Shown here: positions 51,734 through 53,397 of the stretch, piece by piece | Layout: every line of letters starts with the position of its first letter | Position numbering within the stretch: position 1 is the stretch's first letter | Assembly: GCF_002139935.1 (NCBI RefSeq) | Contig: NZ_CP015578.1 | Location: 372,001-436,000, forward strand | Source: Campylobacter lanienae NCTC 13004 | Lineage (GTDB): Bacteria; Campylobacterota; Campylobacteria; Campylobacterales; Campylobacteraceae | DNA: 64,000 bases | Direction: 5' to 3' | The notes under the pieces: model-generated | What the model was told of the DNA's origin: nothing | The model's input: only the letters and a program-made list of their open reading frames with translations | Database searches by the model: none | Translations under genes and position numbers: made by a program

Positions 51734-52189
51734 ATGGCAAATAAATATCCTTTTGATGATTTGTTAAGAGATTTTAAACAAGGACTTCGTGAAGCTGGTT
51801 TTAAACCTAAAATATTTTGGATGATTGCCCCATTTGCGATTTTTATACTATTAACAATTCTTGTCAAATATGGAGTTGTTCATCAAAATGTTATACCTTA
51901 TATATTTGCAGTGCCTATGATGTTTGTTCCTCTATTTTTTCATCTTCCAGTTTGGATATTTAAGAAGATTGATGGAATTTGGGATGACATTATTGATGAC
52001 TTAGAAGATAGGTATGAAAAAGAATTTAATGAAAATATTCGTATTACTCGTAAAGTAAAGAAATGGCTTGGAGAGGATAAAATTGATATTATCTATACGA
52101 TTGCTATGGTAAGCGGTATTTTTATATTACTTCTTTGGATAACTATGATTTGTGCTGGATTACCTAGACTTGCGAAAGGTATATTTTAG
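51734..52189 (+). CDS. Hypothetical membrane protein, three predicted helices
   Basis: I do not recognise this 151-residue protein. It has an N-terminal amphipathic cytoplasmic part (YPFDDLLRDFKQGLREAGF), two adjacent membrane helices (about 31-50 and 55-77), a charged loop rich in Asp, Glu and Lys (about 80-115), and a third helix (about 118-140). The gene is 12 nt upstream of the next hypothetical gene, so they are likely co-expressed. It begins the accessory stretch between groEL and the lipid-like operon. Confidence 0.6.
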   Translation: MANKYPFDDLLRDFKQGLREAGFKPKIFWMIAPFAIFILLTILVKYGVVHQNVIPYIFAVPMMFVPLFFHLPVWIFKKIDGIWDDIIDDLEDRYEKEFNENIRITRKVKKWLGEDKIDIIYTIAMVSGIFILLLWITMICAGLPRLAKGIF

Positions 52190-52201: not shown

Positions 52202-52591
52202 ATGAAAGAGTATATATCTGGTTGGGAAGCTTTGAATATCCCAAATGAAAAAGGCTTGGTGGCAGATTGGCATCCACTTTGCTTTTTAAACAATAAAGAT
52301 GATATAAAAAAATATAAATATAATAAAATTCTAGGAAATAAAGGTATAAAAAAACACTTTATACCTATGCTTAATAGAGATGAATATGTAGCTAGTTTCG
52401 CAAGAGCTATTGCTGATTTGGTCTATATGAAAGAATTCACTGGCTTGAAAAACTGCGTTAGAGACTACTTGGATGACGAAGATGAAAAAGAGCTTTTTGG
52501 CTACTTAAAATCTATAAATTTTGATAAAGAAGTCGATGATTTTATGAAATATGAGCTTACAAAGCTTTATTTTGCTGACAAAGAACAATAA
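52202..52591 (+). CDS. Hypothetical cytoplasmic protein
   Basis: A 129-residue soluble protein. It begins KEYISGWEALNIPNEKGLVA with DWHP soon after, a compact aromatic motif. The C-terminal half is helical and acidic (LKNCVRDYLDDEDEKELFGY). I do not recognise the family. Small proteins opening with a GW-ALN-P...DWH pattern can be partners in two-gene accessory modules, but that is an impression only. The stop overlaps a following ATG (TAATG at 52589-52593) that opens a 15-codon frame, which suggests a third, now broken, coupled gene. Confidence 0.55.
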   Translation: MKEYISGWEALNIPNEKGLVADWHPLCFLNNKDDIKKYKYNKILGNKGIKKHFIPMLNRDEYVASFARAIADLVYMKEFTGLKNCVRDYLDDEDEKELFGYLKSINFDKEVDDFMKYELTKLYFADKEQ

Positions 52592-52638: not shown

Positions 52639-52700
52639 GCTAATAAACAAATACAAGATCAACAACGCTAAATTTAAGATAAATTAGAAGTTTATAATGA

Positions 52701-52706
52701 TATAAT
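52701..52706 (+). promoter_or_regulatory. Sense -10 box, copy 1
   Basis: TATAAT, with a second TATAAT 8 nt upstream. Start of the RNA is expected near 52713, just before GGGGATATGCC. The same pair is in copy 2. Confidence 0.55.
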
Positions 52707-52722
52707 CTTGTTATGGGGATAT

Positions 52723-52747
52723 GCCATAGGGCTGGAACCCCTACGGC
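52723..52747 (+). other. 5' hairpin of the copy 1 peptide mRNA
   Basis: GCCATAGGG-CTGGAAC-CCCTACGGC pairs over 9 positions with one A-C mismatch on this strand. On the reverse strand the mismatch becomes a G-U pair, so the antisense RNA folds more stably here. The left arm is also exactly complementary to CCCTATGGC at 52878-52886. Confidence 0.7.
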
Positions 52748-52755
52748 AAATTCTG

Positions 52756-52772
52756 TCTCCATAGAAAGGAGA
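52756..52772 (+). promoter_or_regulatory. Sequestered ribosome binding site, copy 1
   Basis: TCTCC-ATAGAAA-GGAGA forms a 5-bp hairpin that covers the Shine-Dalgarno AAAGGAGA (52765-52772), 8 nt before the TTG start. Such hiding of the site is typical of type I toxin mRNAs. Confidence 0.65.
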
Positions 52773-52780
52773 ATAGTATT

Positions 52781-52846
52781 TTGCTAAATATTGCATACTT
52801 ATGTATAATTATACTACTTTGTATAATTGTTGTCAAGGCTTATTAA
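52781..52846 (+). CDS. 21-residue hydrophobic peptide, putative type I toxin (copy 1)
   Basis: The frame starts at TTG 52781, begins MLNIAYLCIIILL and ends CIIVVKAY. A single hydrophobic helix with one Lys near the C-terminus is the pattern of membrane-acting type I toxins; the size and final Ala-Tyr recall the E. coli Ibs peptides, though I claim no homology. It shares ILLCIIVVKAY with the copy 2 peptide. Evidence for translation is a strong AAAGGAGA site 8 nt upstream and conservation of the C-terminal part in the second copy. Copy 1 uses TTG where copy 2 has ATG, so it may be weaker. Toxicity is inferred. Confidence 0.6.
   Translation: MLNIAYLCIIILLCIIVVKAY
52808..52836 (-). promoter_or_regulatory. 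Consensus reverse promoter inside the peptide frame, copy 1
   Basis: On the minus strand TTGACA (52836-52831), exactly 17 nt, then TATAAT (52813-52808): a full consensus sigma70 promoter. The RNA should start near 52800 and run leftwards across the peptide start, ribosome binding site and 5' hairpin. Confidence 0.8.
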
Positions 52847-52852
52847 GTCTTG

Positions 52853-52868
52853 CCCCACGAAAGTGGGG
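52853..52868 (+). terminator. GC-rich hairpin after the copy 1 peptide
   Basis: CCCCAC-GAAA-GTGGGG, a 6-bp stem closed by a GNRA tetraloop, 6 nt after the stop codon. No U run follows, so it may protect or structure the RNA rather than end it. The same hairpin is in copy 2. Confidence 0.5.
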
Positions 52869-53070
52869 ATGCAATCCCCCTATGGCTTTACACAAAACTT
52901 GGTTTTTTATGATTTTAGATAAAATTTAAATTTGCTACTAAAGATATTTTAAATCAAATCAAAATTTTAATTATCCATAGTAACTTTAATGAAAAAGAGA
53001 CACACGAAAACAACGCTAAATTTAAGATAAATTAGAATGTTATAATGATATAATTTCGTTATGGGGATAT

Positions 53071-53095
53071 GCCATAGGGCTGGAACCCCTACGGC
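53071..53095 (+). other. 5' hairpin of the copy 2 peptide mRNA
   Basis: Same as in copy 1: GCCATAGGG (53071-53079) can pair locally with CCCTACGGC (53087-53095, one mismatch) or, without mismatch, with CCCTATGGC at the 3' end (53221-53229). Confidence 0.7.
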
Positions 53096-53103
53096 AAATT
53101 CTG

Positions 53104-53120
53104 TCTCCATAGAAAGGAGA
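53104..53120 (+). promoter_or_regulatory. Sequestered ribosome binding site, copy 2
   Basis: TCTCC-ATAGAAA-GGAGA again hides AAAGGAGA (53113-53120), 6 nt before the ATG. Confidence 0.65.
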
Positions 53121-53126
53121 GCGGTT

Positions 53127-53189
53127 ATGTTGTATTTTGTATTTACGACAATTATACTACTTTGTATAATTGTTGTCAAGGCTTATTAG
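53127..53189 (+). CDS. 20-residue hydrophobic peptide, putative type I toxin (copy 2)
   Basis: The full peptide is MLYFVFTTIILLCIIVVKAY, starting at ATG 53127 behind AAAGGAGA. It is one hydrophobic span with a single Lys, too short to be a normal membrane protein subunit. Residues 10-20 (ILLCIIVVKAY) match the copy 1 peptide, while residues 3-8 differ. It is the better-supported copy because of the ATG and 6-nt spacing. By analogy with type I toxins (AapA, Ibs, TisB) it may insert in the inner membrane; this is inference from architecture. Confidence 0.65.
   Translation: MLYFVFTTIILLCIIVVKAY
53151..53179 (-). promoter_or_regulatory. Consensus reverse promoter inside the peptide frame, copy 2
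   Basis: On the minus strand TTGACA (53179-53174), 17 nt, TATAAT (53156-53151), identical to copy 1. Start is expected near 53144. Confidence 0.8.
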
Positions 53190-53194
53190 CCTTG

Positions 53195-53210
53195 CCCCAC
53201 GAAAGTGGGG
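53195..53210 (+). terminator. GC-rich hairpin after the copy 2 peptide
   Basis: CCCCAC-GAAA-GTGGGG, as in copy 1, 5 nt after the stop. The next 187 nt to the GNAT gene are AT-rich without a visible gene. Confidence 0.5.
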
Positions 53211-53397
53211 AAATACAACCCCCTATGGCTTTAGACAAAACTTTATCTTTTTAGTATTTTGGATATATGGATTATTACTATAAGATTTTTTAATCAAAAT
53301 AATATAGCATTTAGCTACTTCTAAATTTGCTTTTAATTGCGATTAAATAGCATTTAAAAGCGTAAAAATTATAATATTAATCCCACGCCAATCCCAA

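What the first reader, a model, noticed from the sequence alone, without database searches (positions are those of the whole stretch)
52661..53243. Tandem type I toxin-antitoxin-like elements encoding 20-21 residue hydrophobic peptides
Two direct repeats of ~240 bp each contain a peptide frame with a strong ribosome binding site, a reverse promoter inside the frame, and folding elements shared by known type I systems. The first 112 nt differ at only 4 positions between copies, and a 38-nt block in the frame is identical. The peptides end ILLCIIVVKAY in both. The plan is like AapA/IsoA of Helicobacter and Ibs/Sib of E. coli, but I do not recognise the peptide sequence. Known: those families act at the membrane. 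Inferred: that these do.
Basis: partly seen in the sequence, partly recalled or inferred. Interest (0 to 1): 0.92.

Follow-up and report, generated by a model that had tools for sequence, protein, structure and literature searches.

The report
Tandem antisense-controlled toxin peptide genes
Two side-by-side copies of a tiny gene for a 20-21 residue membrane peptide, each with a built-in promoter for an antisense RNA that should silence it, belong to a family found in chromosomes, prophages and hundreds of conjugative plasmids of Campylobacter and Helicobacter, where it is mostly unannotated.

Summary
Two direct repeats (52661-52908, 53009-53251) each hold an extended -10 promoter, a 5' hairpin, a Shine-Dalgarno hairpin, a 21- or 20-codon frame ending IILLCIIVVKAY, and a perfect antisense TTGACA-17-TATAAT promoter inside the frame. 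A third copy lies elsewhere in the genome. A codon-blind peptide search finds the family in 58 of 397 Campylobacterota genomes (my count at E<1e-3), confined to Campylobacteraceae and Helicobacteraceae. Related DNA is on 287 plasmid records (258 conjugative) and in prophages.

In 81 loci found by peptide alone, the codons over the antisense -10 and -35 are frozen as ATTATA and GTCAA; between them the sequence varies with codon periodicity. So both peptide and antisense promoter are selected. The mRNA's 5' and 3' ends pair within each locus and covary between loci, as in AapA/IsoA of H. pylori. The peptide is not detectably homologous to AapA.

Best reading: a type I toxin-antitoxin family with AapA/IsoA-style RNA control and its own toxin. 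Toxicity and transcription are not shown. A 2017 paper (recalled, not held here) reported similar systems in Campylobacter, so novelty is moderate.

The parts
52661..52908 (+). Unit 1 (whole repeat copy)
   Evidence: Direct repeats D1-D4; T-run at 52903-52908 as likely 3' end (sequence)
52698..52706 (+). Sense promoter of unit 1, extended -10 TGATATAAT
   Evidence: TATAAT found in the matching stretch in 76 of 93 family loci
52723..52731 (+). 5' arm GCCATAGGG of the long-distance helix, unit 1 (also in the 5' UTR hairpin)
52756..52772 (+). Shine-Dalgarno hairpin TCTCC-atagaaa-GGAGA, with AGGAG at 52767-52771, unit 1
   Evidence: own arms pair better than swapped arms
52781..52846 (+). Toxin frame 1, TTG start, MLNIAYLCIIILLCIIVVKAY
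   Evidence: family alignment
52808..52836 (-). Antisense (antitoxin) promoter 1, TTGACA-17-TATAAT, inside frame 1
   Evidence: invariant at nucleotide level in the family
52710..52801 (-). Predicted antitoxin RNA 1 (start inferred from the -10; end inferred, covers start codon, Shine-Dalgarno and 5' hairpin)
   Evidence: inference; predicted duplex with its own mRNA -173 kcal/mol
52853..52868 (+). 3' UTR hairpin CCCCACGAAAGTGGGG, unit 1
   Evidence: repeat D4
52878..52886 (+). 3' arm CCCTATGGC of the long-distance helix, unit 1
53009..53251 (+). Unit 2 (whole repeat copy)
   Evidence: syntenic single copy in genome G006
53046..53054 (+). Sense promoter of unit 2, extended -10 TGATATAAT
53071..53079 (+). 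5' arm GCCATAGGG of the long-distance helix, unit 2
53115..53119 (+). Shine-Dalgarno AGGAG of frame 2 (within the hairpin)
53127..53189 (+). Toxin frame 2, ATG start, MLYFVFTTIILLCIIVVKAY
53151..53179 (-). Antisense (antitoxin) promoter 2, TTGACA-17-TATAAT, inside frame 2
53058..53144 (-). Predicted antitoxin RNA 2 (ends inferred)
   Evidence: inference; predicted duplex -169 kcal/mol with its own mRNA, -131 with mRNA 1
53195..53210 (+). 3' UTR hairpin CCCCACGAAAGTGGGG, unit 2
   Evidence: repeat D4
53211..53218 (+). AAATACAA, pairs with the start of frame 2 (TTGTATTT, 53130-53137)
   Evidence: own frame start and own 3' UTR pair better than swapped ones, 0 of 5000 permutations
53221..53229 (+). 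3' arm CCCTATGGC of the long-distance helix, unit 2

Best explanation
Each unit is a type I toxin-antitoxin module with AapA/IsoA-style RNA control and its own toxin family (called here the KAY family, after the C-terminal residues). The sense promoter makes a ~195-nt mRNA for a 20-21 residue, single-helix hydrophobic peptide. In the full-length mRNA the 5' UTR pairs with the 3' end, the start of the frame pairs with the 3' UTR, and the Shine-Dalgarno sits in a hairpin, so translation is low (structure: shown by comparison; effect on translation: inferred). A consensus promoter on the other strand, inside the frame, makes a ~90-nt antisense RNA over the start codon, Shine-Dalgarno and 5' hairpin, blocking translation and exposing the duplex to RNase III (promoter conservation: shown; the RNA and its action: inferred). 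If the antisense RNA is lost, for example when a plasmid or prophage is lost or under stress, 3'-trimmed mRNA would be translated and the peptide would insert in the inner membrane and stop growth (inferred from AapA1 and AapA3). The family travels on conjugative plasmids and prophages (shown), where it probably acts as an addiction module (inferred). The chromosomal pair in this window is a unit with a syntenic single counterpart in a relative, plus a second tandem copy.
For: Peptide selected: searches with the peptide profile, blind to codons, find 58 genomes (my count at E<1e-3) in two families. Of 102 loci collected with that profile, 95 keep the stop at exactly +12 codons from the antisense -10, with no gaps in the core. 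Between the two antisense hexamers, second codon positions are nearly invariant (1.92-2.00 bits for five of the six codons) while third positions vary (0.48-1.62 bits). Antisense promoter selected: among the 81 loci drawn from the peptide search, codons 1-2 are ATT ATA in 81/81 and codon 9 is GTC in 81/81, although in window genes ATT is 26% and ATA 41% of Ile and GTC 14% of Val codons. In this genome 3 of the only 11 perfect TTGACA-17-TATAAT sites are these units. RNA structure selected: own 5'/3' pairing -22.7 versus -18.0 kcal/mol with partners swapped, 0 of 5000 permutations; frame start/3' UTR -14.4 versus -9.4; Shine-Dalgarno hairpin -9.7 versus -8.1. The helix is rewritten many times, e.g. 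GCCATAGGG/CCCTATGGC, GCCACAAGG/CCTTGTGGC, GGCTAGAGG/CCTCTAGCC, TAAGCAGGTGAA/TTTACCTGCTTA. Mobile: 287 plasmid records, 258 predicted conjugative; CJIE4 and other prophages; 58 stretches in viral contigs. Same layout in fetched AapA1 loci: in-frame ATTATA and 5'-3' pairing. AapA3 paper: without IsoA3 the toxin is lethal and only 3'-truncated mRNA is translated (PMC6733600).
Against: No transcript, toxicity or membrane data exist here. Predicted accessibility of the Shine-Dalgarno does not rise on 3' truncation over the family (0.31 to 0.32), although the start codons of the two window copies do open (0.03 to 0.39 and 0.08 to 0.49), so the activation switch is only weakly supported. No canonical terminator was seen for the antisense RNA (sequence inspection). 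A few copies are broken (shifted C-terminus in L005 and L016; no start codon in L009, L020, L205). One negative control of the swap test (5' UTR versus frame core) was also mildly significant (-13.4 versus -12.6, 1 of 5000), so about 1 kcal/mol of such an effect can come from relatedness or composition.
Confidence: 0.85

Rival explanations
1. A small membrane regulator or stress peptide under antisense control that is not toxic at natural levels; the plasmid and prophage copies are passengers.
For: Several characterised small membrane peptides are regulators (general knowledge). Many copies coexist in one genome (8 in G086, 7 in G276), which a strongly toxic gene tolerates only with tight control.
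Against: In-frame antisense promoter, Shine-Dalgarno hairpin and 5'-3' lock are the hallmarks of lethal AapA modules (PMC6733600); repeated carriage by plasmids and prophages; broken copies lose the start codon or the C-terminus.
Confidence: 0.1
2. The antisense RNA is the functional product, a trans-acting small RNA like NikS of H. pylori (proposed to be a type I antitoxin to aapB that also regulates virulence factors, PMC11264685), and the peptide frame is a relic.
For: The antisense promoter is the most strictly conserved element; the predicted antisense RNAs are structured.
Against: The frame is intact in most copies and shows codon-like conservation between the promoter hexamers.
Confidence: 0.04
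3. A non-coding repeat (for example a mobile-element end or processing site) in which a peptide frame arises by chance.
For: Repeated units at several sites, high secondary structure.
Against: Codon periodicity, fixed stop codon, start codon with Shine-Dalgarno in most copies, and codon-blind retrieval across two bacterial families.
Confidence: 0.01

Closest known systems
AapA/IsoA type I toxin-antitoxin family of Helicobacter pylori (aapA1/IsoA1, aapA3/IsoA3)
   Same: Cis-antisense RNA from a promoter inside the toxin frame, ~200-nt toxin mRNA, 5'-3' long-distance pairing, Shine-Dalgarno hairpin, short hydrophobic peptide with a Cys in the hydrophobic stretch and a basic residue near the C-terminus, multiple paralogous loci per genome.
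   Different: Toxin sequence not detectably homologous (hhalign probability 0.2%); 19-25 residues ending VKAY rather than 30 ending KR; the antisense promoter has an invariant TTGAC -35 element at 17 nt, absent from the fetched AapA1 loci (ACCCCA or GCCCCA there); carried on conjugative plasmids and prophages.
Similar structures in Helicobacter and Campylobacter reported by Arnion et al. 2017 (doi 10.1093/nar/gkw1343; recalled from memory, paper not held); T1TAdb (cited in PMC6733600)
   Same: By recollection that paper searched for homologous mRNA structures and reported similar systems in many Helicobacter and Campylobacter genomes; this family may be among them.
   Different: Could not be checked here; the peptide motif occurs in no held paper.
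CjrA antisense antitoxin of Campylobacter jejuni 81-176 (Shen et al. 2016, cited in PMC10470494)
   Same: Described as an antisense RNA antitoxin of a type I system in Campylobacter.
   Different: Sequence of the toxin not compared; relation unknown.
Ibs/Sib of Escherichia coli
   Same: 19-residue hydrophobic peptide repressed by an RNA antitoxin (PMC8309996).
   Different: No Rfam match of any kind in the window; family seen only in Campylobacteraceae and Helicobacteraceae, no link to Ibs found.

Membership tests
Type I toxin-antitoxin system (general kind) | Small hydrophobic peptide frame with its own ribosome binding site, under selection | tested here: met
   95 of 102 loci keep the frame to the same stop; codon periodicity between the antisense hexamers
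Type I toxin-antitoxin system (general kind) | Antisense RNA gene opposite the toxin | tested here: met
   Met at the level of a conserved promoter only: ATTATA and GTCAA invariant in 81 of 81 peptide-found loci; RNA itself not observed
Type I toxin-antitoxin system (general kind) | Toxicity relieved by the antisense RNA | not testable with these tools
   Needs expression experiments
AapA/IsoA family | Antisense promoter -10 inside the toxin frame | tested here: met
   same in fetched AapA1 loci
[quoted passage not shown]
   Own versus swapped pairing -22.7 versus -18.0 kcal/mol, 0 of 5000; compensatory rewriting
AapA/IsoA family | Shine-Dalgarno sequestered by local hairpins | tested here: met
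   Own versus swapped -9.7 versus -8.1, 0 of 5000; mean unpaired probability 0.31
AapA/IsoA family | 3' trimming opens the message for translation | tested here: inconclusive
   Family mean for the Shine-Dalgarno unchanged (0.31 to 0.32); start codons of both window copies open
AapA/IsoA family | AapA toxin sequence, with C-terminal Lys-Arg needed for toxicity | tested here: not met
   hhalign probability 0.2%; C-terminus is KAY. Works like AapA/IsoA, not filed as an AapA toxin
Ibs/Sib | Sib RNA family match | tested here: not met
   No Rfam family reaches its threshold in the window
CjrA system of C. jejuni 81-176 | Identity of toxin or antisense RNA | not tested

The most novel reading that the evidence does not exclude
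The KAY peptides are a toxin family not yet described as such, separate in origin from AapA but converged on, or recombined into, the same RNA lock, and they are the unannotated addiction modules of the main conjugative plasmids and of CJIE4-type prophages of Campylobacter jejuni and C. coli.
Probability: 0.3. Interest if true: 0.68.

Novelty: new member of a known kind. Interest (0 to 1): 0.52.

Why it matters
A codon-blind peptide search plus the plasmid, prophage and chromosome hits show one small toxin-like family spread through Campylobacter and part of Helicobacter, without a family model in Pfam, NCBIfam, PHROGs or PADLOC. Many conjugative plasmids carry it within the conjugation gene cluster, so it may help explain why these plasmids persist. 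The same 39 nucleotides encode a peptide, an antisense promoter and RNA hairpins, which makes it a clean case for studying overlapping constraints and for testing the AapA/IsoA control model outside H. pylori.

Tried and rejected
Rfam search of the window at curated and relaxed thresholds: nothing relevant. The first phylum-wide pattern was one base out of register and returned nothing; it is not evidence of absence and was replaced. RF02202 in the own genome was an irrelevant probe. tblastn of the 20-22 residue peptides against plasmids found nothing and against phages one weak hit, presumably because the low-complexity filter masks them; DNA searches found 287 and 9 records. A block of about 20 one-mismatch hits in genus g4 (ATTATATAGATTTTAATG...) is an unrelated conserved sequence and was discarded. 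The idea that 3' truncation generally frees the Shine-Dalgarno was tested and not supported over the family. Profile comparison with AapA found no homology. The key paper (Arnion 2017) could not be read; the text library holds no paper with the peptide motif.

Full report
WHAT IS THERE. The window lies at C1:372001-436000 of a 1,594,554-base chromosome of a Campylobacter (inferred: contigs of same-genus genomes match named Campylobacter records). Downstream of groES-groEL and two small genes, and next to a GNAT acetyltransferase gene on the other strand, two direct repeats occur at 52661-52908 and 53009-53251. Their first 112 nt differ at 4 positions, a 39-nt block in the frame is identical, and two blocks after the stop are 96% and 88% identical. 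Each has a sense extended -10 (TGATATAAT), a 5' UTR hairpin, AGGAG within a hairpin, a short frame, and a GC-rich 3' hairpin. The frames read MLNIAYLCIIILLCIIVVKAY (TTG start, 52781-52846) and MLYFVFTTIILLCIIVVKAY (ATG start, 53127-53189). Inside each, on the minus strand, is a perfect TTGACA-17-TATAAT. The whole genome has 11 such perfect sites, with 0 for the reversed pattern, and three are the copies of this unit. The third copy is at C1:256576-256789 (-), beside a 321-residue Cas9 fragment.

MORE THAN CHANCE. Folding z-scores are -4.4 and -7.0. A DNA search of 60 relatives found the unit in 11 genomes including other genera. A pattern scan of named genomes found it in Campylobacter jejuni, C. 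coli, C. gastrosuis, C. taeniopygiae, C. aviculae, C. estrildidarum, C. majalis and in Helicobacter mesocricetorum, H. turcicus, H. rodentium, H. valdiviensis, H. burdigaliensis and H. apodemus, among others. The one Treponema record is a metagenome bin and probably a contaminant. In 153 family genomes the corrected pattern gave 65 with a match (about 20 of these an unrelated sequence in genus g4) against one hit for the reversed control.

PEPTIDE-LEVEL TEST. A profile of 23 peptides was run against 397 genomes across the phylum. 73 matched at E<=0.01. By my count 58 matched below 1e-3, all in two families and five genera. I fetched 60 places and re-scored all loci: 102 distinct loci, 95 with the stop at exactly the same codon. 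The core of these shows no insertion or deletion relative to the antisense -10; only the N-terminal part changes length.

TWO LAYERS OF CONSTRAINT. Because one search does not see codons, the codons of these loci are an unbiased sample in that respect. In 81 such loci, codons 1-2 are ATT ATA without exception and codon 9 is GTC without exception, followed by AA in all 81 (AAG 78, AAA 2, AAT 1). These are exactly the complement of TATAAT and TTGAC, 17 nt apart. The isoleucine and valine codons between them use ATA, ATT, ATC, GTT and GTA. Codon use in nine window genes is ATT 26%, ATA 41%, GTC 14%. Between the hexamers the second codon positions carry 1.92-2.00 bits for five of six codons and third positions 0.48-1.62 bits. 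That is the pattern of a protein-coding stretch, and it lies where the promoter hexamers impose nothing. The loci are related by descent, so the counts are not independent events, but the contrast between neighbouring codons of the same loci does not depend on that.

RNA STRUCTURE. For 93 loci with flanks, the 5' UTR of a locus pairs with its own 3' end better than with that of other loci (-22.7 versus -18.0 kcal/mol, 0 of 5000 permutations). The same holds for the start of the frame and the 3' UTR (-14.4 versus -9.4), the Shine-Dalgarno hairpin (-9.7 versus -8.1) and the last codons with the bases after the stop (-6.9 versus -6.2). One control was flat (-3.90 versus -3.88) and one slightly positive (-13.4 versus -12.6), so effects of about 1 kcal/mol, including the last one, are not safe; the first two are well above that. 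The 5'-3' helix has been rewritten repeatedly while staying paired. Shine-Dalgarno accessibility is low (0.31) and does not change on removal of the 3' part over the family, whereas in the two window copies the start codon opens from 0.03-0.08 to 0.39-0.49. The rearrangement proposed for AapA is therefore neither shown nor excluded here.

MOBILITY AND CONTEXT. DNA similar to the core is on 287 plasmid records, 283 of Campylobacter, 258 predicted conjugative, often several places per plasmid. In two of the three plasmid regions read it lies among conjugation genes, and in none is it annotated as a gene of its own. It is also in CJIE4 prophages of C. jejuni, in Helicobacter prophages, and in 58 stretches of viral contigs, all keeping the frame to the stop. 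In the relative G006 a single unit lies at the window's site, aligned with the region of unit 2 and its right flank, so the tandem arrangement is variable between species. At the site of the third copy, relatives that share the neighbouring gene carry more distant units of the same family.

MECHANISM. The layout is that of AapA/IsoA: an in-frame antisense promoter, a long-distance 5'-3' lock and a sequestered Shine-Dalgarno. Fetched AapA1 loci from the H. pylori group show an in-frame ATTATA and strong 5'-3' pairing. For aapA3, loss of the antisense RNA is lethal, the full-length mRNA is not translated, and a 3'-truncated one is (PMC6733600). I infer the same control here, with a membrane-inserting peptide as the toxin, as for AapA1 (PMC8309996). 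Predicted duplexes suggest some cross-pairing between the tandem copies (-173 and -169 for the cognate pairs, -140 and -131 for the others), so the two antitoxins may partly cover for each other, unlike the module-specific IsoA RNAs.

KNOWN OR NEW. The toxin is not detectably related to AapA, and the -35 element of the antisense promoter is invariant here and absent in the AapA1 loci looked at. No family model covers the peptide. From memory, Arnion et al. 2017 reported similar mRNA structures in many Helicobacter and Campylobacter genomes; that paper is not held, so this family may already be catalogued in outline. I therefore rate it a new member of a known kind.

Noticed in passing
L271 (NZ_CP028188.1) about 1655-1886: On C. 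coli plasmid pGMI16-001 the unit lies antisense over the annotated 5' end of trbG; about 75 residues precede a typical signal peptide (LKKLSLIASLLLFIGSSAYA), so the annotated TrbG start is probably too far upstream. Matches under trbG, trbJ or 'type IV secretion system protein' recur on many plasmids.
   Followed up: partly
L023 1843-2808 (genome C1 near 256,900): A 321-residue open frame beside the third copy matches the Cas9 alpha-helical lobe (PF21069, E 2.4e-25) and ends early: a truncated Cas9 remnant.
   Followed up: partly
L044 (JAGBBT010000074.1): A Treponema metagenome bin carries a Campylobacter-type unit; likely binning contamination.
   Followed up: no
L005, L016, L009, L020, L205: Broken copies: a shifted C-terminus in L005 and L016, no usable start codon in L009, L020 and L205.
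   Followed up: partly
G086, G276, G283, G330: Some genomes carry 6 to 8 copies of the family.
   Followed up: no
Genome C1, the 8 other sites listed: The other perfect TTGACA-17-TATAAT sites mostly begin TTGACAAA and may be strong promoters, notable in a genus usually described as lacking a -35 consensus (general knowledge).
   Followed up: no
window 51734-52189 and 52202-52591: Two small genes between groEL and the units (151 and 129 aa) have no Pfam match above cut-off.
   Followed up: no
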